DNA from: Rhexocercosporidium sp. MPI-PUGE-AT-0058
Taxonomy: Eukaryota; Ascomycota; Leotiomycetes; Helotiales
Reading direction: 5' to 3'
Assembly (NCBI GenBank): GCA_020746875.1
Contig: JAGTJL010000004.1
Span: 2,294,001-2,358,000 of the forward strand
Length of the DNA: 64,000 nucleotides
How positions within the stretch are numbered: position 1 is the first letter of the stretch; each line of letters opens with the position of its first letter. Positions 3,224 to 21,934 of the stretch are shown in pieces. The translations under genes and the position numbers were made by a program. Under the pieces are notes generated by a model. The model saw only the letters and a list, made by a program, of their open reading frames with translations. It made no database searches and was not told the origin of the DNA.

Positions 3224-3479
3224 AGCTTATACTTTATTATAAATATATTCTTTTATTTTCTTTTATATTTTAAAGTACTTTTTAAGTTAATATAATTACG
3301 TAAAGTATATTTCTTTTTAAGTTATTAAAAGGTAAGAATTTTATTCCGGCCGAAATTATAACTAAACTAATGCAAGTAAGTATAAAAGGGCCTGTTCTTA
3401 AGTTATTTATAAAATAGCAAATTATAATTCTAAAAGGACACGTTCTTAAGCTGCTATTAAGTCGCGAATTAAACTATTA

Positions 3480-4170
3480 ATAAATTTACTAGCTCTATTA
3501 GTAACTCTTTAATGCGGCGGCGGCGGGCGGCTATATTACTAGTAATAATACTAGCACTAATAGCATTAGTATTAGCACTAATATTAACTCGAACAGGTAA
3601 GAGGATTAGGCGGGGGGCGGGGGTAAGGACGACGGGGGCGGGGGCGGGGGCGGGGGCCGCAGTAGTAATAGTTAAATAACTAAAGTCAGATTCTTTGAAG
3701 CTATTTATAAGGATAAGATAAATATATTAAGCGCAGTAAGAGTATTACGGACCGAAGCTCAAAGGTTTCTTAATTATTACTTAGAGTTAATTAACTTTAA
3801 AACATAAGAATTAAAGCCAAATTTACGCGGGTGCGAGAGGCATTACGCTTTTCCTCTATAAAAGCGGCAAAAGCCACCGCGATAGTAGGCCTGATAGGAC
3901 TAGTATAACTATAATTCTGGCTATAATACCGAAGGTACTAAGCCGAACCAGCAGTATCTTAATAAATGCTAATAGGAAGGTCACCTTTTAAGACAGCTTT
4001 AACGTATGCCGAGCAGGGGACTTCCTTATCAGCACTTGCCTTAGCACGCCGGCGGGCGAGAGTAGCAGGGGCGGCAGGGGCGGCAGGGGAAGGCACAGGA
4101 GAGGGGGTGCGAGGGCGAGGGCGACGGCGAGGGAGAGGGAGAGCGGCGGCAGGCTATTATAATTGGTCAG
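3480..4170 (-). pseudogene. Antisense cysteine-cluster gene of Copia-0 (aORF-0)
   Basis: Antisense to pol, between the pol stop and the 3' LTR, lies a decayed reading frame. It begins with a Pro/Arg-rich segment (about 4050-4165), followed by a six-position cysteine cluster at about 3895-4020. Written with RIP-type Tyr codons (TAC/TAT) counted as former Cys, the spacing is C-x2-C-x13-C-x8-C-x2-C-x6-C. An Ala-rich helical stretch (IAVAFAAFIEEKR) follows, then Pro-rich and Arg-rich (RRRRRIKELL, near 3520) pieces. The spacing resembles the fungal Zn2Cys6 DNA-binding cluster except for a longer first loop. The exact start is not determinable. Homologous genes in the same position occur in Copia-1 and F. 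Confidence 0.55.
3510..3665. repeat. GC-rich simple repeats (CGG)n and (GGGGGC)n
   Basis: A CGG-type run at about 3512-3530 and a GGGGGC-type run at about 3610-3660 stand out in an AT-rich surrounding. They fall in the antisense gene of Copia-0, where on the minus strand they encode Pro/Arg runs. They probably survive because RIP acts mainly on CpA dinucleotides, which are scarce here (inference). Confidence 0.7.
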
Positions 4171-4541
4171 TATGTTTTAACTTACTTAATTTCTCGATCT
4201 TTTGACTTAAATAACGTCGGAAACTAAACTTAAAGATATAAAAGATAAAAGGAAATATACTTTTTTAGCTACGCGAGCAGCGGCGAGGTTAAAGAGGCGG
4301 GAGGCACGAGCGGCTAACTTAGCGGCAGAGATACGATTTATTTTTGAATTTAGTATGCTTATAAAAGGAAATTACGGGGAAAGGGAGCTATTTATATATT
4401 TTCGCTTATATATTAAGCATATTTACTTTGATTATTAGTTAATACTTTTCCTTATTATTTGTCGTTTTATTATTATTTATTATATTTGTTATGTATTTAT
4501 TTGCTTCGCTAAAGCTACGTATTGTCTTTAGCGAGGGGGTG

Positions 4542-4738
4542 TGTCGTGCAGATTATAATTAGTTGGTTAAGCGAGCTTAATTAAGATTACTAAAACCATA
4601 GCGCCAGTAAGCTCTCTTATTCAGGGAGCTTAAATGCGCTATATATAATAATAAAAACAATAGTTATATACGCAACTGCGCAGCCTTTAATTGACTTAAT
4701 ATTCGCCTTTGTGGAGCCTTAAGGTATGTTGCACGATA
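4542..4738 (+). repeat. Copia-0 3' LTR (197 bp)
   Basis: It begins TGTCGTGCA and ends TGCACGATA, a 9 bp inverted terminal repeat with a single C-to-T change. It is directly preceded by a G-rich purine tract (GCGAGGGGGTG), the expected polypurine primer. No second copy is in the window, so the call rests on termini, primer tract and position downstream of pol. Its target duplication cannot be checked because the 5' end is outside. Confidence 0.75.
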
Positions 4739-5153
4739 ATTATTAAAGGTTTCTTTATTTTCCTTATAAAAAAGCTCGTCCTCGAGCTCAAAGGAAGTAT
4801 CTTTTAAAAAGCATTCGACGGTACTAATTGCAAAGCTTTAATTATAGCTAGTTACTCGTTTTCCGAGTCAGTTTCAGACTTCAAGTAATTTAATTCCGGA
4901 TTTAATAATATTTTATTAGCTCGGCTCTTAAACTTTATAACTTCGATGCTTCTGGCGTACTTTATAAATTTAGCTACTTTAATAATAATAATTAATCGCG
5001 TAATCTTATTTTATAAATTAGCGTAAACTAAACCGCCTTCCGTATTAAATAAATATTTAAATAAAACGCGCGTAATCTAAAAGAATAAAAATCTAAAAAT
5101 AACTTTAATACTTAAAATATTTATAATATAAAACTTAATAAAGATAATATAAT

Positions 5154-5158
5154 CTCTT
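5154..5158. repeat. Target-site duplication CTCTT, left copy
   Basis: Five bases CTCTT directly before the left LTR of Copia-1. The identical five bases follow the right LTR at 12496-12500, so this is a simple integration event with both ends preserved. Confidence 0.95.
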
Positions 5159-5365
5159 TATCGGTATAACTGTACCGGGACATATAACAATAAAGTCACC
5201 TAAATAAATATCGATATTATTAAGTGATTTCAAAGGTGTTATAAAGTGTATTCTTCTAAGATAAGAGTAAAGCTCCTTATATACCGATCCGGAACCCCAC
5301 CGAAACCTTACCGTTTCGGCCTTAAGCTAGAGTTCTATATCGGTAAGAATCCTTACGGACTAATA
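5159..5365 (-). repeat. Copia-1 3' LTR (207 bp)
   Basis: A near-identical copy of 12289-12495, both exactly 207 bp. Here the terminal TG/CA have become TA/TA, as RIP would do. In the minus-strand orientation of the element this is the 3' LTR. Confidence 0.95.
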
Positions 5366-5665
5366 TAGGCAAAACTTCTTTTGAAAAGACGATAAGAGTT
5401 ATAAACGTAAAAAAGAAGAGTATATAAAGAAATAAGGAATAGAATATATTAAGGAAAGAGGCCGTAGCGGTGGAATAAAAGAGTCGAACTCTATTAGCGA
5501 ACAATAGGTGGCTAAGCGAGGAGCTCGACTAGCTACTAAAGTGCTTACTATTATCAATTAATTATAAGTATAAGGAGAAATCTCCTTTAGGAATCGACTT
5601 AATCTCTTAAGCAACTCTATTAACAGAATCTATACCCTTGAATTATTAATTTATATGAGAACGAA

Positions 5666-6462
5666 GTGCTGACAGATTCTATAAACCTAATAACAATAAC
5701 AATAACAATAACAAGTAAGTTATCATTTATTCAAGATCAATTCGGTATCGATCCGGTAGTGATTCGGATGTTAACGAGTGATGTAGTACTAATTCCCGTT
5801 TCTGCCGGTGCCCTCCGGGCTGCCCACCGTGTGTGCTGCCTCCGCTGCGCCCGCCTCATGGCGACGATTCCGTCGCATGATTGCCTCTTCTATAATAAGA
5901 AGGGGAAGAAATACGCTTATTGCGCAAAACAGAAGACTCCTTACGTCCCCGTAAGTTGTAAAATCTTGAAATTGACTCCGGAAACAATTCGTAAAGGCTC
6001 CGTGTCTGATATATGACCTAGCTCCCCTAGTACGTGGGTGAGGAGTTCTCTGCCCTCTCCGCTGCCGTAGCAGCAAAGGATAAGGCTGCTATAGTCGCCG
6101 CCGCGACCGAAATCGATTCCGTTTGCTTGATTGCCTCGGCGGAAGCGTTAAAGACCGAGAAGGAGGCGTTGGTAGCGTTACTAGAGAAGACTCGTGTTCT
6201 CTGTGGAGAAGTGTCTAACTTGTTAGATAACGTTAATATAAGTACTTCCGATTCTAGCCTAATATTCGGTTAATATTAACGCTTAAAAGCCTTATTAGAG
6301 TTCTCCCGTCACGCGGCGATAAGGGCGGCGAAGAAGCGTTATCGGGGAGATTCTAGTGCGGGAGGAAATAAGAACGAGACGAAGGAGGAGGATGATAAGC
6401 CTACGGCCGAGTAAGAAACTACTCGCGCCAAGCGCCGTCGTCTTCGCCGCTCGTCGTTCTAA
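5666..6462 (+). pseudogene. Antisense cysteine-cluster gene of Copia-1 (aORF-1), two exons
   Basis: It lies on the strand opposite to pol, between RNase H and the 3' LTR. Exon 1 (to 5950) encodes a cluster at about 5832-5944 spaced C-x2-C-x11-C-x9-C-x2-C-x6-C followed by VP; the fourth and sixth Cys now read Tyr (TAC), as RIP would make. The exon stops at a GTAAGT donor (5951), and a TAG acceptor ends at 6021. Joining 5950 to 6022 keeps phase 0. Exon 2 encodes an Ala-rich helical region (AAVAAKDKAAIVAAA, then AEALKTEKEALVALLEKTR), an acidic patch and an Arg/Lys-rich C-terminus with a natural stop at 6460-6462. Remaining in-frame stops (6028, 6271, about 6412) are TAG/TAA that would be CAG/CAA before RIP. 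Zn2Cys6-like DNA binding is an inference; the start codon is uncertain. Confidence 0.65.
5951..6021 (+). other. Predicted spliceosomal intron in aORF-1
   Basis: 71 bp with donor GTAAGT, a CTGAT/TGAC-like branch region close to the 3' end, and acceptor CTAG. It ties together two reading frames that otherwise do not connect, without a phase change. An intron in this orientation is antisense to the element's genomic RNA and would not be removed during retrotransposition. Confidence 0.6.
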
Positions 6463-6828
6463 AGGCCCTGTTTCGGATTGGCTTCGTAGTTGGCTCTTCG
6501 TGGCGATGCTTTCTCCATACTCTTGTACGGGAGTAGCCCCTTATAATGAAACCGGCAGCCAGGTCCTTATTAGAGTGTCGTTGTAAGACCGCTCGTTGGT
6601 GCTTTAAATTAGAAGGTAAATAGAGAATTTAATTACCGTTCCTTATCTCGTAAACTAGAAGTAATATAAAATATGATATGAAAAGAGCGTGAGTATATAA
6701 AAGAAATTGAGAGTTAAAGAAAACTATTACTTTCTGAAACGATATCGGAACTAGTCCGAATCGCCTTCGGTTAGCCTTTGGATTCAACCCTCCATTTTAA
6801 TAGTAAGAGAATTTGAATCAATTAATTC

Positions 6829-7317
6829 CTAAAGAGCCTTGTTTGGATTTGCTTTAGTCATCGCATTAACAGGATTGCGAGCTTTATCGATCCATCTTAT
6901 CTCCGTTAACTTTCTGCGTTCGTACGACTGTCGAATGGCTATTATATTAATTATTAAACGTTTTTCCTTCGTCGTGCCGAGTTTAACGATGCATTCGTAC
7001 AGCGAAAGAGAGTCTATATAGACGACGGTAAGGAGGCGTGGAAGGCCGAGCTTGTCAATTATCATAGCGACGGTAATCGACACAAAAACAAGTATATTAA
7101 CACCTGCTATTATAGCGTAAAGCTCGGAAGCAAGAATAGCACGTGTTACTCTCTTACACTTCGTTAAGCTAGCGTGGATAATATTATCACAAAATATAAA
7201 CTTTGAATTCCCTTTCGTTTCGGTACCGATTAATACCAAAAACCCGATTTGTGAGCTCAAGTCTTTATTATTAGCAAAAGAGCCGTTAATAAAGGCGTAT
7301 ACCTTAGCGGACCGCAA
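6829..7317 (-). pseudogene. Copia-1 RNase H domain, open for 162 codons
   Basis: An uninterrupted stretch with typical fungal Copia RNase H sequence: FANNKDLSSQIGFLV near the start, then KRVTRAILASELYAI, IDSLSLYECIVKLGTTKEKR, and RWIDKARNPVNAMTK near the end. In the intact element this is the C-terminal part of pol and degrades the RNA strand during reverse transcription. Frames upstream are broken, so it could not be made as part of a functional polyprotein. Confidence 0.9.
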
Positions 7318-7559
7318 ATTAATAGGTATATACCGTAGGCCTCTCTTCTGGTTGTTTATTTACTATTGAAGACGTAGATTTAAGGCCTTAGCCTCCTCCG
7401 TAGACGGATTTTGGTGTTATGCCGCGACGGAGAGATCAAACGTAGCTTTTGGTTAGTATATCGTCGCGATATATGCTCCGCGAGCGCGTTATTTCCGGTA
7501 AGCCTCCTTATAATCTTCTTACTTAACGTTAACGACTTCTAGTCTTATTCCTTATCTCT

Positions 7560-8360
7560 TCTGAGATATATAGAGATCGTTTCCCTTTATAATAATAGTA
7601 CAGCTATTGAACGTGACCGATTCGGAGGGGTTAAGGACCTGTATTAGCTTGGTTAAGAAACCGGCTTTTGTGATCTGTTCTTATTCCGTCTTTAAGAACT
7701 CGCTGTTTCTTAGAATGAGAGTATCGTCCGTTTGCATTTTAATCAGTCTAAAATGGGGGTTCTGCTGCGTAAATATTAATAAACAGGGGTTAAACGTGGA
7801 GGTTTCCATTTATAAGTTCTCTTAATAGTGTTTGTGATACGTGTTAAACTAATAGTTCCCTAATTCCGGAATGCTATATAACGGGAGTATTATTATAAAC
7901 ACCGTTCTATAGGGAAACTCGTCCGCAATCTCTACCGGTGGCCACGCAAAGATCTTCCGAAGGAGCTTAATATTAGCTTGTATATATGCCTAGGTGATAT
8001 CACGGATCGCTAGGGTCGATTCGGTATCGTTTCCCGTCCGTTTCAGCATTCTGATAAAGGCCGCTAAGCAAATAAGGAGTCGTTGGCTAATTCGTTAAAT
8101 TATTAGTGACTGTGTTAAGATATCCTTCTTCCCTTTATCGTTAAAGCATATAATTACTAGCCTTAACTTCTCCCGTGGTATAAAAGTCTCCTTATCTTTA
8201 ATCTCGTCTATTATACGTGACTTGAATATTCGGTGGCTTTTAAGTCGTGAGTCGCTTTAATCGATTAATATAAAGACACCTCTTTCCATAAGTGCTTCGT
8301 ATTCTGTCTTTCGGGATTATTAGAATAGTGGACCTAGCGTCTTAATCTTGCCTTCAGCTC
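7560..8360 (-). pseudogene. Copia-1 reverse transcriptase remnant
   Basis: Read on the minus strand with a few stops: EYEALMERGVF, SRIIDEIKDK, FNDKGKKDILTQS, RDIT-AYIQANIKL and LYSIPELGNYWFNTYH-like blocks, in the order of Copia RT. Only a few codons are stops, fewer than in neighbouring elements. Confidence 0.8.
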
Positions 8361-8889
8361 GTAGTTTAATAGCGAGCTCTCGGTCTCTGGTCTCTTTCTC
8401 CGTAAGAAACGCTTTTACATCAGAATCGTCGTTAAATACTTAAATTCCTAGAATTAGTTATACAAAAAGTAATTTAACTGCGATTCGGTGGGTTTCCGGT
8501 GTCGTTCCGGATAAGTTGTTGACTCGTGATCCCGGCTCACGGGACTCTTTTAGTAAATTTTCTTTCTGAGGTTTAACGTTCGGTGTATTTGTCTTAAATA
8601 GACGTATAGAGGTTGATTTAAAGGTTTTGATTCTATTGCCGTTTATCCTAATTTTACACGTCTCTTCTTCTATTCTTAGGAAATTATACGGGCCTTTCCA
8701 CTCCTTCTTTTCCCTCCATATTATAACTTAATCTTTGATTCGGAGGTCATATATATGAGTTGTTATAGGACCGTTGCGCGTCCCTAGCGCGTCATTTACT
8801 TGCCGGCTAGCCTGAATCTTACGAATCTCCTTTATAGCTTTCCTAATAATAGTGGCGCGTTACTTAATAAACGAATTTAATAAGTCTAT

Positions 8890-9570
8890 TTCGGTTAATT
8901 TAAAGTAAGCGCCGAAAATAAATAATATAAGGACAAGGCCTTAAGGACCTACTGTATCGTTAACTGCTTTTACAATTATTTATAATCTGTCCTCGTCACT
9001 TAATTCCGGGTGCTCTTCCGTAACGATTTCGTACGCTCGGCGAAAGGGGCGGTGGAATCGTTTTACTTTTTTAATAGAATAGTGTGCCTCTACAGGCACG
9101 AGTTTCGGCGTCGTCCTCATTAATCTCAGAGAGCTCCTGAACTCCTCTGAGTTGAAATTGGTCCCGTAATCGTAGATTACGTAATTAAGAGGGCCGAGGT
9201 AAGTGTCTATCTATGCCGATTTGAGTGCGTTGAATACAGACCGAGCCGTAGCCGATCCGGTGGCCTTTCGGAGTAGTTTTGCTTAATTAAATCCTGTGCT
9301 TTCGTCGACTATATGAAGGACTTGTCTAGCCCCTAGCTAGACTATATTAACGTAAACTGTGTAGTTGAAGTCAACGTCGTCCTTTAGTTTAAATCTAAAC
9401 TTCTATAAAGCTTCTCTATGCCTCTGGCAGTGCTTACACAGCTCCCTGACCTTCCTTATTACTTCGGAATCGGGATTATAGCCGGCTTAGTCTAGTAAGA
9501 GCTTCAAACGCGCTACCGTAAGGTGGCTAAACCGCTTGTAGAGTCGTCTAATCTCCGTCTCTGTGAGGTA
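8890..9570 (-). pseudogene. Copia-1 GAG-pre-integrase and integrase core remnant
   Basis: The block LYKRFSHLTVARLKLLL with a following C-x2-C (CKHC) marks the integrase zinc-binding region (about 9420-9560). The core follows with VDFNYTVYVNIV and VLHIVDESTGF near 9290-9380. Integrase would insert the cDNA; here it is frameshifted and stopped. Confidence 0.7.
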
Positions 9571-9799
9571 GCACGTGCTAATCGTCCCCGTTGAAGAGTT
9601 AAGAAGTTGACTATAGCGATCTAAAAGAAGCTACGCATAACCTTTCTTTCGAACGATTAAGTGTCTCTTCTTGCCTTAAATTAATACGTTACGGAGGTTG
9701 TCGTATTATATATTGAGCTTATCCAGCTATTGCAAACAAACTAAGAACGGTATGTCCGCGTTCACAATTATGAATTCTATCTTACTAACAGGAGTATTA

Positions 9800-10440
9800 A
9801 TTATTGCAATTCTAAGGGAAGGTCTCGAACCGGCACCGAATGTGATCCGACTCGTTCTTACTTAACTTATATTAAATTCAATATTCTAAATCTATTGCAA
9901 CGCCCGCAACTGGTTAATGCCGCCGGTGTTCTTATTAAACGCTCCCGTGTCAATTAGTAGACCTTAAAAGAATCTATTAGTCTATTGTATTATATATGCC
10001 TCGGAAGTAATAGGTTTTGCAATTATAGCTTCCAAAATGTGAATTGCCCTTCGCTCCTCAAGTTGCTAAAGCACTTCCCGTGCGTTATACTTCTTCTCAC
10101 TTGCTGTGAATACAGTCGTATAAAGTGCTAAGCCGTCGCTTTCTCCACTCACGTCTGAGTCGTCCGAATTAGTAGTGGAATCGACTTCCGACGACGATTC
10201 TAGCTTATGGTAGCTATTATGGTCTCTAGAAGGGGTCCGAATCCTGTCCGAATCGGAACCGTTCCCCTTTATATATGCTAAATATGTTTTGAAAAAGGAA
10301 TCGTTAGCTTTAAGGCCTTCTGCCTTCTTATCTGCGAAGTATTTTGCCTTAGAGGTAGCTCTTTCTTCGTTTATATAGCGGCTACTGTAGTAATCCAATT
10401 TCTTACAGATAATACAGCCGGAATAGCCAGGTTTTGGCTT
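9800..10440 (-). pseudogene. Copia-1 gag C-terminus (zinc knuckle) and protease remnant
   Basis: A CxxC motif (CIIC, about 10,405-10,416) followed by KKLDYYSSRYINEER is a decayed zinc knuckle of the type seen in fungal Copia gag. A 110-codon open stretch follows (10,066-10,398, Ser/Asp-rich). The protease is marked by LLIDTGAFN at about 9935-9960, the DTG active-site triad. Confidence 0.75.
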
Positions 10441-12288
10441 GAATTTGTCTCCGCGTCTGTTTCCGGACGAGTACTTAATCTTTCGGTCCGAGTAATGCGC
10501 GTTGCTTTCTGCGACGTGGTTTCTGTGTCGATTTAGGCCTGTTTCGGAGTGCCTATAGCGTTAATCTGAGCTATGCGTCACCTCCACGCCAACCGCGTTC
10601 CGTAGGCTATTTATAAAAGTGGGAAAAGTTGGAGGCGCGTTAAAAAATGCTATTTTAAAAAGAAGATTACTTAATATTCCTTAAATTATTTTATTACGTA
10701 GCGTTTAATTATTCCGCATATACTTATTCTTAAGACCTAGCTGTATATGCTGCAATTCCTTGGCGAAGTTCTCTAACTGAATTAATACTGACTTGCCGCG
10801 TTAACAATTAACTTTCTGGAAATCTTTAAATTTGAGGTTAAACCATCGGCTAAAGAACCGCTGAGCTCGCTCTTCCGTCTTAAAGTAATTACGCGTAGCT
10901 TATATTAATTAATCAAACGTATACCTCTTATTTTGCAAGTAATAGTAATAGTACGTGCTCGCCTCGTCTCGTATTATAAAAGGAAAAGCTCTCTTTCAAA
11001 TTGCTTTAAAAACTCCGGCGCGTTAGCAGAAGTCAACAAAGATATGCAACTTCTCGTCCAAGTAGTCCTTCGTCTTATTATATTAGAGCTCTTTAGTATA
11101 TATCTTCGACAGCGTCGCTAAAGACCTAGTTTAAGATTCCGAGAAAGGTTCCATAATAAACCAGGAAGGGAGGTCCGAATCCCTACCGTTACCTATTAAT
11201 TCCGAGGTTATCTCAAATAGTAGTACTAACCCGTCTCTTAGGATAAATGGAAGTGCCGGAGTTAAGTTTGGAAGTAGAGTATTATTTAGTCTCTATTAGG
11301 GTAAACCTTCTATAAGGCCAGGGGTAGGAAATAGCGACTCCTTCTTTACCTTTACAGGCGCCGGAGGAGTTACGTTATACAAATCCTCCTCCGTACCGGC
11401 TACTGTAATATACTATAGAGTCGCAACGTCTTAGGTGCTCCGTAGCGTGTACGTCTCTTAGCCTAGAGTTAATATTCTGACTTTTAGCGTTCGTAGAGCT
11501 GGTCGTATTAACTCAAAACTCCTGATTTGCCCGTCTTATAGCCGTAGCTCGTCTCGTATATATTCTGGTATAGATTCAGGGTGTAATTAAGCTTAGTCTC
11601 GAAGCTAGTCTTGCGGCCACCTGTTATATAGTGCCTGGAGTGTTGCGTACAGCGCTCTGACGGTCTCTGTCCTCTTTAACCGTTCGACGTAGACTCTATG
11701 GAATCTGAGAGCGTCATAAAGATAAAGTCTCTTTTATTTGTTAATTATTCTGAGTTAGTCGATTATTCATTCGCTAAAGAACTCATAGAAGTCTTAGAAA
11801 AGGAATTCTCCCTTGACTCGTCTATTACAAAAGTCTTTACGGAAGTCTTCTGAGTACTTCGTTAAGTCCTCGGGGAAGTCGTTTATCGGCTGAGTCTCTA
11901 AGGCTTAAGGTATAATGTTTACCTCGTTCTCTTCTCCGTTATTTATCGGAATTAGTTCTCTTACTTTAGACATGATTTCCGTAACGGTGCCGTTCCGGTA
12001 TAGTTCCGGTAGGTCTGCGGAAATAAAGTCTCGTATTGAGAGGGTTTATATTGACTTAATAGTTGTCGAAGAGTGACTGTCGTATTAAGGTTAGTGTTTA
12101 ATAGTATCGTCGAGACGTTCGGCTTTTTGTAACGTCTAAAAGCTGAGAAGATTCTCCCTTTTAGTTGATTTAAATATAAAGGCGGAGCTAAGGCGTTGAG
12201 ATCTTGACTTCCCGCGCTATCTGCGATTTCAACTCTTCAGTGCTATAACTTTACCGTTCTGTGGTACTTTAAGTAAACTACTAATTAG
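10440..12288 (-). pseudogene. Copia-1 gag region and 5' leader
   Basis: About 1.8 kb between the 5' LTR and the zinc knuckle, in the position of gag. Short minus-strand coding-like pieces are visible but no domain is recognisable by eye. No convincing primer-binding site could be assigned next to the LTR. Confidence 0.5.
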
Positions 12289-12495
12289 TGTCGGTATAAT
12301 TATACCGGGACATATAATAACAAAGTCACCTAAATAAATATCGATATTATTAAGTAATTTCAAAGGTGTTATAAAGTGTATTCTTCTAAGATGGGAGTAA
12401 AGCTCCTTATATACCGATCCGGAACCCCACCGAAACCCCACCGTTTCGGCCTTAAGCTAGAGTTCCATATCGGTAAGAATCCCTACGGACTAACA
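12289..12495 (-). repeat. Copia-1 5' LTR (207 bp)
   Basis: Begins TG and ends CA, with TGTCGGTATAA at the left and GGACTAACA at the right. It matches 5159-5365 over its full length and keeps canonical termini that the other copy has lost. CTCTT follows directly at 12496-12500. Confidence 0.95.
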
Positions 12496-12500
12496 CTCTT

Positions 12501-12720
12501 ATTATAACCGGGATATTATCCGCATATCTCAGAAATCGCGATTTTACGCTTGTAATACTTTTTAAAGCTATAAAATCGCTTTTTATAATAAAGACTTTTA
12601 ATTAAACGGCAATATTATAAGATATATAACTGACTTCTACGTCGAAATCAAGAATAACTCGGATATTACTAAGTCTCGTTCTTTTAAGTATAATAATTAT
12701 ATACTTTAGCGTTAGAAAGT
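12501..12720 (-). pseudogene. Element G aspartic protease, first part
   Basis: Minus-strand translation contains VILDFDVEVSYIS, matching the retropepsin active-site region (D-x-G expected; Gly now Asp). It is followed by LKVFIIKSDFIALKSIT and YADNIPVII. The reading continues on the far side of Copia-1 at 5153, which supports the idea that Copia-1 landed inside this gene. Confidence 0.6.
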
Positions 12721-14449
12721 ATTACTTATAACTCGGTTCTTAAAGCGTATCGATTAAGTAAACTTTAGCGATTAATAATAAGTCGATTTTAAATTCTCTT
12801 TTTAAAATTATTATTTTTTAAAACGTTATTAAAATAGCAATTAAAATTATAAGTACCGAGCTAAAGAAAGGAATCAGGCTTAATAATAATTAAAAAATTA
12901 ATTATTAAATTAATATTTCTTATATTAAAAAAACTTAATACTTTTATTTCTTTTATTAAATTTAAAGCTTATACGTAAGTCTAGCTCGAGATATAATAAA
13001 GTAAATAATAACTCGTTATTCTTATTTAAGGAAAATACGTCTAAGTTATCGCGAAGCTCGCAATTTTCTTAATATAAAATCTAAAGTATTAGCTTAAAAT
13101 AATAAAAAGCGTTAAAATATAATATTATTCCTTTTCTTAATCGTAGTCCTAAAAAGCTTTTATATACTTTATAATCTTAATATTAATAATAATAATTTAG
13201 TCTTAAATTTCTTAATTAATAATCTTCGGTCGACTTATTCTTAATAAATTAATTAAAACAAGGATTTCTCTTAAAATTAAGTTTTTAAAAAGCTCTTTTT
13301 AAATAAAAAGCTTATTTAGCGTATTATTTAGCGTATAATTATTCTGTAATAACGCCTGATATACGCGAAGTCGGCCTGAAATCGCCCTGACAGTAATAGG
13401 TAAATTACTTTCAGCGCGTTTCTAAATAATCCTTATAAAAAATAATTTAGTAATAATCGGTTCTTTTTAATTTATAGCCGGAATAGCTTTTTTTAATTTC
13501 TTAAAAATAATATTATTATTATTATCTCTTGCGATAATTTAAGTAGGTTTTGCTTTAAGTGCTTCAGTTAAAAAGTCTACGTTTATAAGCTTTTGAAATC
13601 TAACGGCATTCTTTATTTCTTCGCGAACTTTTAATTTTCCGTAATTAGCTTAAGCTTTAAGGCGTTCTTAAAATAAGATTCCGGTTATATATAATTCGGC
13701 TCTTACTATTATTTTAAAAGCAGCGGCATTTTATTATTTTATTTTTATAAATGCTATTTTAAAGCTATTATTTATTCTTTTTAAATTAAAAGTTATAAGT
13801 ACGTTTTAAACGTTAACTAATCTTATTATATTAAAGAATCGGATAGCGAGGATGTTTAAATAATCTTAAGGCTCTTAATTTACTTTTAATATTAATTCTT
13901 TTAAAGCTAACTTTAATATAATATTTTATTAAATTAAAAGAGCTTCTTAAGCGTCCCGGAGCTTCTTTTAGATTACTTCTTCTTTTCGCCTCGAATCTAA
14001 ATCTCTTTTTATATTAATTATTCGTAAAATAAAAACTTCTCTTTTTAATTTATTCCGAGGAAATTAAACCGCTTAAGCTTTTATTCTTTTTTTTTAAAGG
14101 CTTATATAAATATAATTATCTTTATTCTTATAAATAATTCCTAAATTAAGTTATTTCTTAAACTCGTGATATTAATTTTAATACTTATAGAATCCTTAAA
14201 ATCTAGCATCCGGAATCAGCTTATTAAAGCAAAAGAAGTATTTAATGCTTATATTATCTTTTATATTAAAACGTTAATTATATTTAAAGCTTATTTTAAA
14301 ATTTTAATAAAATACTTTAGCTTTTTTAAAATATATAATCGACTTGTAAATAAATAAAGCTTTGATTTCGGCTATTAATTCTAGATTCTTTTTTTTCTTT
14401 ATAATAGCGTATAAAATACGCAAGTTATTTAATTCTTTCGCAATTATAT

Positions 14450-15350
14450 TAATATTCCGTTTTATAACCTAATTAATATCGCAAGTCAGCCTCTCGATAA
14501 TAAGAATAACTTCTTCTCGAATATGCTTTTTTTAATTTAGTCTAAGATAAAGCACCGAATTCTTTTTAAAAACGTCGTCGATTTCCCGAGTTAGAGAATT
14601 ATCCTTATACTTTATAAGCTTAAGGCGAGTTATAAAATTAAGCCCCCCGAACTGTGCTACTGAAGAAGGAGTTTTACTATTACTCGACTTTAGTCGAAGA
14701 TAATCGGCCTAAGTAATTTATATAAATAATACTTCTTTTTTAATTAAAGTATTAATTTCCTACTCGACTTAAAATAAGCCTTTTATTTTAGCGTATATTT
14801 TATCGAAAGATCGTATGTTTTCCGTATTAAAGGTATTACCGTCTTTTATAAAAGTTCCGGCCTTCTGCTTTAAGTATTTAAGTAAAGCTATTAGAAATTT
14901 TATAATTATTCATTACTTTATAATAATTTTCTTTCGCATATAAGCTTGATTAATTTCTTTAAAAACTTAAAGAAATTATTAAAATTAAGATTTAAAAGCA
15001 TCTTTTATAATATATTTAAAGTTATTAAATATCTTCTTTAAGTTTTAAAGAATATAATAATATTACTTAAAGTCGAACGTTTAGTACTCTTTTATAACTT
15101 TCTTAATTAACTTTTAATAAGTGCTATTAAGGAAATCGAGGAGCTACTCGATGTTTTGGCCTACTTCGAAAGTGTAATAGTTTACGACGTATTATTTCTT
15201 TTCGGCGTTATCCGTAATACCTCGAGCCGTAAAAAGCTGCTTTAAAGTCTTAAAGAACTTAATAGTATTATTCTCGTTAAAGTATAAGTAATTAAAAGTG
15301 CCTAAGGTTAATATAACTTAAGCTATTATAAAATAAGGAGGTCTTTTAAT
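14450..15350 (-). pseudogene. Element G gag remnant
   Basis: Minus-strand reading shows a capsid-like arrangement: GTFNYLYFNENNTIKFFKTL, LFTARGITDNAEKK, VVNYYTFEVGQNIEWLLDFL (W restored from a stop) and further helical segments. This is typical of Gypsy/Copia gag nucleocapsid precursors in fungi. The frame is interrupted by several RIP-type stops. Confidence 0.6.
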
Positions 15351-16149
15351 AAAGTCCGTAGCAAGTCGTGCGGCCTAAGATATAAGCTATTAAGACGCTA
15401 TATTATTAAAAGTAAGTTTATAATAATAATTATTTAGAGCCTTATTTATTTTATATAATATAAAAGTTTTAGTAAGTTTATATTATCCTAGCGCAAGTTA
15501 TATTAATTAAAAAGCTTAAGCGGAAGTAACTTAAGCCTAAAGCGGTGTTATATAGCTTATATTAGCGAGGTTAAGTCCCCCCTGCTTCGGAGGCGAATAT
15601 AATATAAATTAAAAGTATATAAGTTAAGTAAGTATTATATAAGCCGGTAAAGCTTAAGAGGCGGCCTAAACTCTTATACTAAAGCTTTCTAAATAGCTAT
15701 TATTTTAATTATAATTGAATATATCTTATTATAAGTTATTACCGCCGCTTTTATTTCTCTTCTTTCTCTTATTAATAATTAAAGCATTATCCATAAGTAT
15801 TCCCGGTAATTATAATAAAGTAAAGCTAATAATTCTAGCGATATTAAGCTTTATTAAAAGTTTAATAAGCATAAAAGTAAAAGAGCTTATAAAGCTTATA
15901 AAGCCAGTCTCAGTAATAAAGTAATCTATAGTCGAGGTCGTAGAGCTTCCTCAGGTTATAAAGAAATTATTAGTAAGTCGTTTAAGCTCCTTGCCCTTTG
16001 GGTTGCCGCTAAAAGCGTTGTTTTTAATATTATTTTTTAAATATAATTAATTTTTTTTAATAAAATTAATAATTTATTAAAGAGTAAATACGCTTAATAT
16101 TACTAGTAAAAGAGTAAAAAATATAATATATTATATTAAAAAAAGAAGA

Positions 16150-16920
16150 ATATACGAGCTCGAGAAAATAAAAGAAATATATAAGTAAAATATTAAATTA
16201 AAAAGCTTATAACTTTAAGCTCCTCCCGGGATAATAAAGCCCGAAAGACGCCGAAGTCTAGGCTTTTTATTCTTATAATAAATAAACGTATAAGCTTAAG
16301 CGAAATAAATAAATCTCGCTAAATATAAAAGCTTTATTATTATTAAAATTAATCTCGGCATAAAATAATTTAAAACCGAAACCAATTAAAAAAGCATAAA
16401 GTAAAACCCCGTTTACTTTTTTATTAAGCTCCGTCTCGCTAGCTTAAAATAAGCTTTTAATAGAAAAAGAAAAGGAAAAGAATAATAAATACGCCTATTA
16501 AAAGTGCGATTAGCGTTAAAATTTACCGAATTTATTTTAAATAATCTACTTCTTGTTTCCGAAATATTAAATATACTTTAATATTAATTAAAGCGTTTTT
16601 AATAACGTAATCCGGCTATTTTCGGTCCGACCTTTTTCAGTATTAATACTCTATATACTAAAGCTAGCATTTCTAATAATTTAAGTACTTTTATATTAAA
16701 AGTAAATAGTTTCCTTTTAAACTTCTTATACTTCTCGTTAAACTATAAGAGACTGTCGAAGTGCCGTATCTGGTTCTGCTTTAAAAGCTAAGAGATCTCT
16801 AAGTAAATAAGTCTATACTAGTTCGAGCACTTATTAGTTTCGGTCTTTATAATTAATATAAGGAGCTTTTAGGCTTTTTTACATATCTTACTCTAGCTTT
16901 TTTACTTATTCCTTACGTCG
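16150..16920 (-). pseudogene. Unidentified coding-like remnant
   Basis: On the minus strand one frame holds together for about 250 codons with few stops (SVNFNANRTFNRRIYYSFPFLF, KAYFKLARRSLIKKGTGFYFML and similar blocks). I do not recognise the family. It lies upstream of element G gag and directly left of a family D LTR, so it could belong to the G leader/LTR, to another element or to an old gene. Low confidence that it was ever translated. Confidence 0.3.
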
Positions 16921-16932
16921 GTTATTAAAATA

Positions 16933-17213
16933 TATAAAAAAGAAAATACTAAATATATAATAAAAAAGTAATAAAATAAGTGCCGGAAAGTAATCGTAAG
17001 AAATACTTATTTAACAAGTACTTAAGATATTATATATTTAAAATATATAATTTATTAAAAGAAAAGAAAAGTATAATTTAAATAAGAAAGAAAAGTTATA
17101 ATAATAAAAATCGTTATTATTATTAAAAGATATTACCTTAAAGGCTATCTTAAATACAGCAAGATACAGCTCAATCACGTGACAAATAAGCCTCTGAGGT
17201 CAACCCCACCACA
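16933..17213 (+). repeat. Family D LTR, RIP-decayed copy
   Basis: Aligns over its length with 31342-31623, with differences mostly G-to-A or C-to-T. It ends CCCCACCACA like the other copy. The left end is decayed and could be a few bases off. The target duplication is unclear: GTAC follows the right end, and the left flank is ambiguous. Probably a solo LTR. Confidence 0.75.
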
Positions 17214-17621
17214 GTACTTAAATATTAAGTAAAATAGCTAAGTCATAACCCTAATTCATAATAATATAATGCTTTTGATTTAATAAAGTCGCTTTATAAA
17301 TTAAGAGATTTTTATACGGCGTATTTTAATAAACTAGGACTACCCTAGAACCTGTCCGAATAGCTTAAGGCTTAGAAATAAAAGGAAGACAATTATAATC
17401 ACTTAAAAAATAATAAATTATAATTTCCTTTCGAGACAGTAAAACGACGACGTTAATTAATAGCTATTTACCTTTTAATTTAAAATACTAATAAGGCCTT
17501 ACGACCGTATCCCAATAAGAACTTAGCCACCGATTTTATTATAAACGGCTACTTTTGCATAAGAGTTTAAAGAAAGTAACGGCTATAAAAGACTACTAAA
17601 ACTAATCCGAAATAAAGCCTT

Positions 17622-18365
17622 TTAATTTTTACTAAAAGGGTCCTCTTCCTCTCCCGATAAAGGCTCGGTTAGCTTACTGTTTAACTTTTTATAAAAAGGG
17701 TTAAACTTTTTCTTTTTTTTCCTTTTCTTAATAATAATAATAGCCGCCTTACGCTTAATATTATTACGACGTGTATAGCGACGAGTTATACTTATATTTT
17801 TATTTTTATCTTCCTCTCCCTTTTTATTATTAATATTATTATTACGGCGAGTCATTTTAATTACTGAAGTAGCAAGGACTTATAAGAACTTTAATAAGGC
17901 TTTTAAGTATTAAATATTAATATTATTTATAATAAACTTAACGACTTATAATAACGTTATTTAATTACTTAAATATAATATAATAAAAAGCCCGAGTCTC
18001 TTTTAATACCGTAAACCTTAACTCTTTTATAATCTTAAGCGCTTCCGCGATCGCCATAAGTAATACCTCGTCAATCGATAAGGCGGCAACTTAGACTTCT
18101 GCATTATCGACAGCTGCTAATAATACGTTATACTCCGGGCTTATAAATCATAAAAGTTAAAAAGTCAAAAGTATTAATATTAGACTTGTTTTAGAAGTTT
18201 TTTAGATTTTAACTTATAGAGCGGCAAAATCCTTTTTAAGCTATATAATAAGCATATTTCTTCGAGCTATTCTTGTCGAAGTGATAAAAGTGGCCCGGCT
18301 CCTTCGCCATCCGGCGCATATAGCGCACGCAGTAGTTACAGTAGGCCGCCGCTAAGGCTCTTAAT
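17622..18365 (-). pseudogene. Antisense cysteine-cluster gene of element F (aORF-F)
   Basis: The minus-strand frame at 18,224-18,344 reads C-x2-C-x14-C-x9-C-x2-C-x6-C, with three of the six as Tyr codons that RIP would make from Cys. KKYAYY aligns with KKYAYC of aORF-1. It is followed at 18,217 by ATAAGT, where aORF-1 has its GTAAGT donor. After a gap, exon-2-like sequence at about 18,130-17,980 (LLAAVDNAEV, then IDEVLLMAIAEALKIIKE and LKETRAF) aligns with the AEALK region of aORF-1. The tail (open at 17,622-17,855) is Asn/Lys/Arg-rich with KKRKKKKKF, like the basic end of aORF-1. Function unproven; a DNA-binding zinc cluster is plausible. Confidence 0.55.
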
Positions 18366-18836
18366 AGGGTTAAAAGAGGCACTATTATAGTCAGAATTCG
18401 GATTTTATTATAAAAGTTACGGGATTTTATTTACTTATTATTATTTATTTATTTTAATTGACTAGCTATATATATTAATAATTACATAACGTAAATCGAC
18501 AATTTAAAGTAACTTACGGAGAAGTGTATATTATTAAAAGAAGAAGAATTAACTCTTTAGAAAGTTTAACGTATATATGCGCCAACATAAGCAAATAAAT
18601 CGATGGCGCTAAGGCAGCACAATACGATAAGTAACGGACTAGATTCGGACGCCTATTTTATTAATTAAATAAATAAAAGCTCGCCCTCTTATAATATATT
18701 ATTTACTATTATATAAGACCTTACTTACGCTCGCGTAACCTCGCTTAACCTCGGATAAAAGCCCTTAGCACCGCAATAATATTAAACTACGACTAATTAA
18801 AGATTAAGAATAATCTCTCTTTTAAGAAGAGGGTAA

Positions 18837-19094
18837 TATAACGATAAGTGCATTTAAGAGCTTCTTAACGAGTTAAGGAATCCAGGGGTTTAAAAGTAAC
18901 TAAGTCATGCCGAGTCGGACTAGTATCGAAGGGGTTTCGGAAGAGCTTATATATATAAACTCACACTTCCTCTACTCCCTCTTTCCTTCTTTATCTTCTT
19001 ATTTCCTTTGTATTAAACCTATTAGCTCTCGATAGCCTCAGCTAAAGTACTATTATATACCTCTTACACCGCTCTCTTAGCTAGTATCGTTACA
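18837..19094 (+). repeat. Element F 3' LTR (258 bp)
   Basis: Starts TATAACGATA (TG changed to TA) and ends TATCGTTACA, a 10 bp inverted terminal repeat with one RIP-type change. The purine-rich AAGAAGAGGGTAA lies immediately upstream, very like the tract before the gag-only element's LTR. No second copy is in the window. A TATATATATAA box occurs inside. Confidence 0.7.
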
Positions 19095-19764
19095 ATCGAA
19101 GAGTTTAATTAATCTTTTATAATACGTAAGCGCTTCTTAACTTCTTTAATAAAGCTCGAGGGTCGAGTCGGCGAGACGCTAATTATAAGTCGTATAAAGA
19201 CCTTAGACTTAAAGGAATCGCCGAATACCGTAATCCTAATTTACTTCCGGCGATAATTATTTAAATTTAAGAAAGCGTCCTTTTATTCCGTATTAAATTA
19301 GTAAAATTTAATAATTAACTTATTAAAAGAATTAATATCGACGAAGACTCGCTAATTAAAGTATAGTTATATAAGCATATTTAATAGCTATTCTAACCGA
19401 TTACGGTTCTTTATATACAACTGCTTTAAATCGTAATACTCGAAGAACTTCCGATTAATTAAAACGTCGGTATTTCTTAAGTTAATTATTAAGAAAAAGA
19501 AGTTAATTCGCCGGCAGTCGATAATTAAAGTAAGTAAGACAGCCGTATCGATTAGCTTACTTTTCTTATTATTATAATTAATTAAAATAATTAATTAAAA
19601 GAATATTACGAAAGAAATATTAAATTACTTAACGAATCGGTATACGAAAAAAGTTTTAATTATACTGAAAATATTTGCTCCGCTATTAATATATATAAGT
19701 ATTTTAATAAAAAATCTATTCCTTCTTAATTTAATATTAATTAAGAATTATCGTCCTCCGATAA
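19095..19764 (-). pseudogene. Gypsy-A protease-region remnant
   Basis: Read in reverse complement, this matches 41,580-42,240 of Gypsy-B base for base apart from RIP-type differences. In Gypsy-B this is the stretch between the gag zinc knuckle and RT, where the aspartic protease is expected. Confidence 0.7.
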
Positions 19765-19924
19765 TATAACGACAGGTATGCTTCGGCTAAGTCAGGGGTC
19801 CGGAACAGGTCCGACTCCTCTCCGACTCCTTATATATATTGCTCCTTCTTATACAGTAGCTCTATAGTTTTTGTATTCTAAGTATTAAGTCTATCTTTAT
19901 ATCTAAGGCTCTTACGTCGTTATA
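19765..19924 (+). repeat. Gag-only element 5' LTR (160 bp)
   Basis: Full-length match to 21,775-21,934 (both 160 bp), with TG/CA ends changed to TA/TA. GATAA precedes it at 19,760-19,764. Confidence 0.95.
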
Positions 19925-21500: not shown

Positions 21501-21774
21501 AGCTTCGTATAACTTCTACAGTCCGATTTCAACTAGCTTAAGTCAATCGTATAGTTTCCGGCATATACTCTCGTTTACTAATCTATAAACAACGTTAGCT
21601 TATAAGTAACGTAGCTTTATAATTAAAAGAATTAAAACGAGAAGTTAATATTATAAGAATCGATACTATACTCGATACTTTATTAAAATATAAATATAAT
21701 AATAAAATTAATTCAGAAGAAGAGTGGGAAAGGTAAAAAACACGAGAACGAGCTTCGGTTTCCTAAGGAGGTAA

Positions 21775-21934
21775 TGTAACGATAAGTATGCTTCGGCTAA
21801 GTCAAGGGTCCGAAACAAGTCCGATTCCCCTCCGACTCCTTATATATATTACTCCCTCTTATATAATAGCTTTATAGTTTTTGTATTCTAAGTATTAAGT
21901 CTATCTTCACGTCCAAGGCTCTTGCATTATTACA
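21775..21934 (+). repeat. Gag-only element 3' LTR (160 bp)
   Basis: Begins TGTAACGATAAG and ends CATTATTACA, and is followed by GATAA. It keeps the canonical TG/CA ends. Confidence 0.95.

What the first reader, a model, noticed from the sequence alone, without database searches (positions are those of the whole stretch)
3480..18365. A recurrent antisense Zn2Cys6-like gene inside the 3' end of Copia retrotransposons
In Copia-0 (about 3480-4170), Copia-1 (about 5666-6462) and element F (about 17,622-18,365) the same kind of gene lies between pol and the 3' LTR on the strand opposite to pol. For F, opposition is judged from LTR orientation, since its pol is missing. Seen directly: six Cys positions (some now Tyr by RIP-type changes) spaced C-x2-C-x11/14/13-C-x9/9/8-C-x2-C-x6-C, then an Ala-rich helical part (AEALK motif shared by Copia-1 and F) and a basic tail. 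Copia-H has an antisense Ala-rich coding region in the same place. Established: fungal Zn2Cys6 clusters are C-x2-C-x6-C-x5-12-C-x2-C-x6-8-C. Inference: these elements carry an antisense-encoded DNA-binding protein, perhaps controlling their own expression, silencing or integration.
Basis: partly seen in the sequence, partly recalled or inferred. Interest (0 to 1): 0.88.

Follow-up and report, generated by a model that had tools for sequence, protein, structure and literature searches.

The report
Antisense cysteine-cluster gene in retrotransposons
Several old jumping genes in this fungus carry the same small, apparently spliced gene written backwards near their tail; it probably makes a zinc-binding nuclear protein, and it is shared by two unrelated classes of jumping gene.

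Summary
The antisense gene is real. Copia-1 (window 5159-12495) and element F carry one homologous gene between pol and the 3' LTR, on the strand opposite pol. F is not Copia: complete relatives are Ty3/Gypsy with a chromodomain-like tail, whereas Copia-1 shows fungal GalEa Copia marks. The gene has the same two intron positions in both. Its protein has an N-terminal cluster C-x2-C-x9-H-x-C-x9-C-x2-C-x6-C, an Ala/Leu-rich part and a basic tail. Homologs occur in the fungus Leptodophora and on unnamed public contigs. In the Gypsy family, 32 of 34 listed 3' LTRs have it 0.3-0.7 kb away, always opposite. It is not Zn2Cys6 by spacing or Pfam. Copia-0 carries an antisense gene with a similar six-Cys layout and likely introns, but homology is unproven. 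About 160 bp of noncoding DNA next to the gene's stop differs by 0.04-0.06 transversions per site between Copia-1 and Gypsy, against about 0.24 in exons A and B: the least expected result. Antisense accessory genes (brtn of Botrytis Boty; plant aORFs) are a known kind. One shared by Copia and Gypsy, with introns and a conserved flank, looks new. Function and expression are untested; no structure was obtained.

The parts
5159..12495 (-). Copia-1, a whole GalEa-like Copia element, 7337 bp, flanked by CTCTT on both sides (5154-5158, 12496-12500)
   Evidence: LTR pair; CTAATTAGT directly after the 5' LTR and QTDD in the RT, marks of fungal GalEa in PMC5445492; flanking CTCTT. Pfam did not recognise its pol pieces
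5159..5365 (-). 3' LTR of Copia-1 (207 bp)
   Evidence: direct repeat 5161-5363 / 12291-12493, ends read by eye
6829..7317 (-). RNase H end of Copia-1 pol (sense strand of the element)
   Evidence: open frame ending in MTKANPNKAL; no Pfam RNase H match
5715..5786 (+). likely leader intron of the antisense gene, just before the coding start
   Evidence: donor GT in 15 of 26 rows, AT in 10, other in 1; CAA-rich leader and donor also in the Gypsy family
5789..5950 (+). antisense gene of Copia-1, exon A: Cys cluster
   Evidence: 26 of 54 residues identical to the Gypsy copy without a gap; 68 matches in the genome, 26 of them Copia-1 copies
5951..6021 (+). likely intron 1 (phase 0)
   Evidence: GTAAGT...TAG; same junction as the Gypsy copies and as the annotated Leptodophora proteins P0001 and P0004
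6022..6237 (+). exon B: LP.YVGEEF..., Ala/Leu-rich part
   Evidence: 33 of 69 residues identical to Gypsy
6238..6288 (+). likely intron 2 (phase 0); two clustered in-frame stops lie in it
   Evidence: same place as the Gypsy intron. None of 26 Copia-1 rows shows GT at this donor
6289..6462 (+). exon C: ALLEFSR..., basic tail, stop
   Evidence: 21 of 56 residues identical to Gypsy
6463..6623 (+). conserved noncoding block next to the antisense stop
   Evidence: 72-74% identical to the Gypsy block; 0.044 transversions per site against 0.227-0.292 in exons
18218..18379 (-). element F antisense gene, exon A
   Evidence: tblastn from Copia-1, E 0.0075
17950..18156 (-). element F antisense gene, exon B
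   Evidence: tblastn from Copia-1, E 1.3e-4
17622..17900 (-). element F antisense gene, exon C with stop
17450..17620 (-). conserved noncoding block of element F
   Evidence: E 1.6e-32
18841..19095 (+). 3' LTR of element F (Gypsy)
   Evidence: LTR copies pair about 7.65 kb apart at contigs C13 and C38
3827..4153 (-). Copia-0 antisense gene, Cys-cluster exon (C-x2-C-x13-C-x8-C-x2-C-x6-C)
3728..3773 (-). Copia-0 antisense gene, small exon between two likely introns
3469..3671 (-). Copia-0 antisense gene, last exon: Ala/Pro-rich, then AARRRRIKELL basic tail and stop

Best explanation
Shown by sequence: the elements carry an accessory gene of their own, antisense to gag-pol and just inside the 3' LTR, read in three exons. 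It encodes a protein of about 180-220 residues with an N-terminal Cys cluster, an Ala/Leu-rich middle and a basic tail. Inferred: it is transcribed from near the 3' LTR towards pol and spliced; the protein binds zinc and goes to the nucleus by its basic tail; there it acts on the element's own nucleic acid (transcription, silencing or integration), as proposed for antisense accessory genes of plant elements. Because it lies antisense, its introns cannot be spliced out of the genomic RNA and so survive each round of retrotransposition. The conserved block after its stop probably ends its transcript, or is the site its product acts on.
For: Homologous protein in two unrelated element classes. 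Two shared phase-0 intron positions. Annotated Leptodophora proteins joined at the intron 1 junction, and two proteins from unnamed contigs that read through an insert at exactly that place (their DNA was not seen). From a single Gypsy sequence, external homologs at E 5.3e-32, 1.8e-26 and 4.7e-22; four more by profile. Gene opposite pol at 32 of 34 listed 3' LTRs. Between Copia-1 and Gypsy, transversions at codon positions 1/2/3 are 38/41/68, p=0.004. Lysine/arginine-rich C terminus in the members read to their end: P0001, P0004, P0005, Gypsy, Copia-1.
Against: No transcript, protein or binding data. Most copies here are RIP-damaged; donor 2 is not GT in any of 26 Copia-1 rows. The position-3 excess comes from a protein-guided alignment, which favours it, though exon A aligns without gaps. 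Zinc binding and fold are unverified: nine structure requests met a busy machine. P0007 lacks the third Cys and P0001 the second, so not all copies keep the cluster. No Pfam family supports any function.
Confidence: 0.62

Rival explanations
1. The locus acts mainly as antisense RNA: dsRNA with the genomic RNA dampens the element, and the frame is incidental.
For: Antisense regulatory RNAs of retroelements are discussed in PMC7264820 (passages read).
Against: A protein about 50% identical between Copia and Gypsy and in Leptodophora, shared intron positions, and position-3 bias.
Confidence: 0.15
2. Two independent captures of the same host gene, one by a Copia and one by a Gypsy element, rather than passage between elements.
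For: Shared introns fit capture from a genomic gene; in a six-row tree the Copia-1 protein groups with Leptodophora proteins (support 89/92, below the tool's star level) apart from Gypsy.
Against: Same place and orientation in both, and a shared 160-bp noncoding block. I noticed no host copy outside elements among the listed matches, but did not check the flanks of each.
Confidence: 0.25
3. The Copia-0 gene is unrelated; the similar Cys layout is convergence or coincidence.
For: Profile comparison is not significant: E 0.2, probability 0.3%; no conserved block in the seven Copia-0 loci compared or at Copia-0 in the window; the tblastn lists do not link the two.
Against: The one alignment found puts all six Cys/Tyr positions in register; same position, orientation, Ala-rich part and basic tail.
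Confidence: 0.5
4. The open frames are chance, favoured by GC-rich or repeated codons.
For: Ala/Pro/Arg-rich frames arise easily in GC-rich stretches, and the reverse strand also has open frames.
Against: External homologs, introns, and zero of 30 shuffles reaching the Cys pattern.
Confidence: 0.04

Closest known systems
brtn of Boty-like Ty3/Gypsy elements of Botrytis cinerea (Zhao et al. 2011, Virology 417:248; paper not held, known here only through citing passages)
   Same: [quoted passage not shown]
   Different: No passage that I read describes a Cys cluster, introns or a Copia counterpart
aORF-3R of plant LTR elements (maize Grande gene23, RIRE2, Retand, PvRetro13)
   Same: [quoted passage not shown] some products nuclear (PMC7264820, passages)
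   Different: No homology was tested here; the review says these proteins have no clear similarity to other database proteins
Fungal Zn2Cys6 transcription factors
   Same: Six Cys in two C-x2-C pairs plus two single Cys; last gap x6
   Different: C2-C3 loop x11/x13 instead of x6; invariant His before C3 in the five rows; no Pfam match
HTLV antisense gene HBZ (recalled)
   Same: Spliced antisense gene near the 3' LTR giving a nuclear regulator
   Different: Unrelated protein, basic leucine zipper

Membership tests
Fungal Zn2Cys6 (Zn_clus, PF00172) | Spacing C-x2-C-x6-C-x5-12-C-x2-C-x6-8-C | tested here: not met
   C-x2-C-x11-C-x9-C-x2-C-x6-C in P0004, L035, L036; x13/x8 in Copia-0
Fungal Zn2Cys6 (Zn_clus, PF00172) | Pfam profile match | tested here: not met
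   no Zn_clus at E<=5 or E<=10
Fungal Zn2Cys6 (Zn_clus, PF00172) | Binuclear zinc cluster fold | not tested
   structure machine busy at nine requests
Antisense aORF (aORF-3R) of LTR elements | Between pol and 3' LTR, antisense, in most copies | tested here: met
   32 of 34 Gypsy 3' LTRs listed; Copia-1 anatomy in the window
brtn (Boty-like Gypsy) | Chromodomain Ty3/Gypsy carrier | tested here: met
   F family: RVT_1 1.3e-38; Chromo 2.6e-5, 24.5 bits, just under its cut-off of 25.1
brtn (Boty-like Gypsy) | Sequence homology to BRTN | not testable with these tools
   paper not held; no hit bore that name
Fungal GalEa Copia (for Copia-1) | CTAATTAGT/CTGATCAGT right after the 5' LTR; QTDD; 5-bp TSD; LTR 138-311 bp | tested here: met
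Fungal GalEa Copia (for Copia-1) | Length 5428-7018 bp, the range of the 44 published elements | tested here: not met
   7337 bp, with the extra antisense gene
Fungal GalEa Copia (for Copia-1) | KSRLVI motif in RT | tested here: inconclusive
   window copy reads KLRLVI
Copia (for Copia-0) | RVT_2 reverse transcriptase | tested here: met
   E 2e-8, 34.6 bits, cut-off 31.6

The most novel reading that the evidence does not exclude
A complete antisense expression cassette (CAA-rich leader, introns, Cys-cluster protein, conserved 160-bp noncoding block) has passed between Copia and Gypsy retrotransposons. The protein recognises the block that travels with it, so unrelated elements share one self-recognition module, and the antisense orientation is what lets a gene with introns ride in a retrotransposon.
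Probability: 0.28. Interest if true: 0.86.

Novelty: new variant of a known kind. Interest (0 to 1): 0.66.

Why it matters
Antisense accessory genes of LTR elements have unknown functions and, by the review read here in passages (PMC7264820), mostly no recognisable relatives. A family with external homologs, a natural copy with the Cys cluster intact (P0004) and a conserved partner DNA block makes the function directly testable. Its presence in both Copia and Gypsy would show that accessory genes move between retrotransposon superfamilies.

Tried and rejected
Copia-1 protein (RIP-damaged) against 5.8 billion proteins: no hit; the less mutated Gypsy version gave three. A scan of viral contigs with the alignment found nothing. 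Viral contig L081 matched P0003 over 38 residues; its genes look like an actinobacterial phage, so chance. Pfam, NCBIfam and PDB: nothing credible. Within-family codon statistics: uninformative. There the high transversion counts in the Copia-1 leader, exon C and 3' flank probably come from copies with other boundaries (at least two rows lack the stop region), and Copia-0 exon 1 was taken in an uncertain frame. RNA structure in the block: z -0.12 and +0.62; Rfam: two matches, both below the gathering score and outside the block. Block as coding sequence: mismatches not phased, p 0.27 and 0.19. A first alignment of Copia-1 copies ignored strand and was redone; a codon test with exon A one base out of frame was redone.
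Full report
What was checked. The window lies in a 62.7-Mb genome of 60 contigs. The Copia-1 antisense exon A has 68 matches in it by tblastn, the rest of the protein 85, the Copia-0 exon 49. The first 26 rows are Copia-1 copies; the weaker rows include element F (G000:C34:2312239-2312487, E 0.0075; exon B at 2311896-2312126, E 1.3e-4). So Copia-1 and F encode homologous antisense proteins.

Element identity. Element F lacks pol, but relatives do not. L050 and L036 give RVT_1 (1.3e-38), RNase H, Integrase_H2C2 and a chromodomain match just below its cut-off. LTRs like F's pair about 7.65 kb apart at contigs C13 and C38, with the antisense gene near the 3' LTR. F is therefore Ty3/Gypsy. Copia-1 has LTRs of 207 bp, CTCTT on both outer sides, CTAATTAGT directly behind the 5' LTR and QTDD in the RT. 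These are features that PMC5445492 gives for fungal GalEa Copia elements (section 10 read). Pfam did not recognise its pol pieces. Copia-0 matches RVT_2.

Gene structure. In Gypsy copies L035, L036 and L038 three antisense frames are open. They are parted by GTAAGT...TAG and GTAAGT...AAG introns. Copia-1 has both at the same codon boundaries. In the Gypsy alignment of ten rows (L052 and L075 were dropped, as the anchor motif was not found), GT stands at donor 1 in 6 of 10 and at donor 2 in 3 of 9, the tenth, L078, having the region deleted. In Copia-1, 15 of 26 rows keep GT at the leader donor; at donor 1, 5 of the 21 rows that the capped listing showed do; at donor 2, 0 of 26 do. Annotated Leptodophora proteins P0001 and P0004 are joined at the intron 1 boundary; P0002 and P0003, from unnamed ENA and JGI contigs, read 17 and 16 residues through it. 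A likely leader intron ends at the coding start. Copies vary between TAATG, TAGTG and mutated forms there, so whether the start codon is contiguous or formed by splicing is open.

Protein. The Copia-1/F family has C-x2-C-x9-H-x-C-x9-C-x2-C-x6-C. The His and the first, third and fifth Cys are invariant in the five-row alignment. Exceptions: P0001 has Tyr at the second Cys, Copia-1 has Tyr at the fourth and sixth, and P0007 lacks the third. An Ala/Leu-rich part and a basic tail follow. A single Gypsy sequence found three proteins (E 5.3e-32 to 4.7e-22). A profile search, which scored only the 8000 candidates sharing most words, listed six; two of them, P0001 and P0002, were already in the profile, so their E-values there are not independent, and P0003, also in it, was not listed. 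That makes seven different proteins, three of them from Leptodophora sp. P0006 resembles Copia-1's exon B and lacks stops, so less mutated relatives exist elsewhere. No DNA context of any of the seven was seen, so it is not shown that they lie in retrotransposons.

Is it under selection? Inside families, columns with a transversion are 0 of 660 in Gypsy exons, 4 of 378 in Copia-1 exons A and B, and 13 of 636 in Copia-0 exons. dN/dS there is meaningless. Copia-1 exon C showed 72 such columns of 171, probably because of rows with other boundaries; I did not use it. Between Copia-1 and the Gypsy copy, exon A is 26 of 54 identical without gaps, exon B 33 of 69, exon C 21 of 56; transversions by codon position are 38, 41, 68 (p=0.004). 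This favours coding, with the caution that alignment was guided by protein.

Place. In the Gypsy family, 34 of the 40 scored LTR matches (of 194 candidates) extend into internal DNA, as 3' LTRs do. Of these, 32 have an antisense exon of the lists within 1.5 kb (322-715 bp), all on the opposite strand. C23:1414273 and C19:480112 have none in those lists, although the block lies beside both and a DNA match to the exon B-C region lies beside the second.

The conserved block. Immediately behind the antisense stop, some 160 bp are 72-74% identical between Copia-1 and Gypsy. Transversions per site are 0.044 (7 of 158; 10 of 164 in a second alignment) against 0.241, 0.227 and 0.292 in exons A, B, C, 0.214 and 0.306 in the introns, and 0.253 in the next 160 bp. 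Mismatches show no codon phase, and neither RNA structure beyond shuffles nor an Rfam family was found. In the genome the block has 34 matches; in the window its only long matches are beside Copia-1 and F. Only 5 of 26 Copia-1 rows match it over 105 bp or more, 7 more over shorter stretches, 14 not at all. I ascribe this to RIP decay and altered flanks, but did not prove it. Strong constraint or recent exchange would both explain the low rate.

Copia-0. The DNA search gave 41 matches. In 17 aligned rows (16 copies and the window; four more loci were left out as duplicates), seven of them displayed, I read an antisense gene with likely introns, a C-x2-C-x13-C-x8-C-x2-C-x6-C exon and an AARRRRIKELL tail. 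Profile comparison with the other family is not significant (E 0.2), though its one alignment puts all six Cys positions in register. It is treated as an analogue.

History. In a six-row tree the Copia-1 protein groups with Leptodophora proteins (89/92, below the tool's star level) and the Gypsy protein with P0002 and P0003. The split thus may be older than this genome.

Literature. Searches (open-access library only). brtn is cited as the antisense gene of Boty-like Gypsy elements; I read passages of PMC8365987, PMC7264820, PMC4227169 and PMC5987419. None of the listings or passages that I saw describes a Cys-cluster antisense gene shared by Copia and Gypsy. Zhao 2011 was not held, so its content is unknown to me here.

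Mechanism. Steps shown: antisense position, intron-like breaks at shared places, homology, block. Steps inferred: transcription, splicing, zinc binding, nuclear entry, action on the element. That antisense orientation protects introns from removal in the genomic RNA follows from how retrotransposition works (established knowledge, recalled).

Noticed in passing
window 6463-6623 and 17450-17620: 160-bp noncoding block far more conserved between Copia and Gypsy elements than the neighbouring exons; role unknown.
   Followed up: partly
L078: Gypsy copy in which the antisense gene runs from intron 1 straight into exon C, an internal deletion; two other Gypsy copies (C23:1414273, C19:480112) have the block without an exon A in the lists.
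   Followed up: no
window 12280-12288: Copia-1 has the GalEa palindrome CTAATTAGT directly after its 5' LTR, where other elements have a tRNA primer site.
   Followed up: yes
window 19762-19922 and 21772-21932: A 161-bp direct repeat 2010 bp apart, 87% identical: perhaps the ends of a short LTR-like element.
   Followed up: no
P0006: Protein named 'phage I-like protein' by its source is a Copia-1 exon B frame; the name looks wrong.
   Followed up: no
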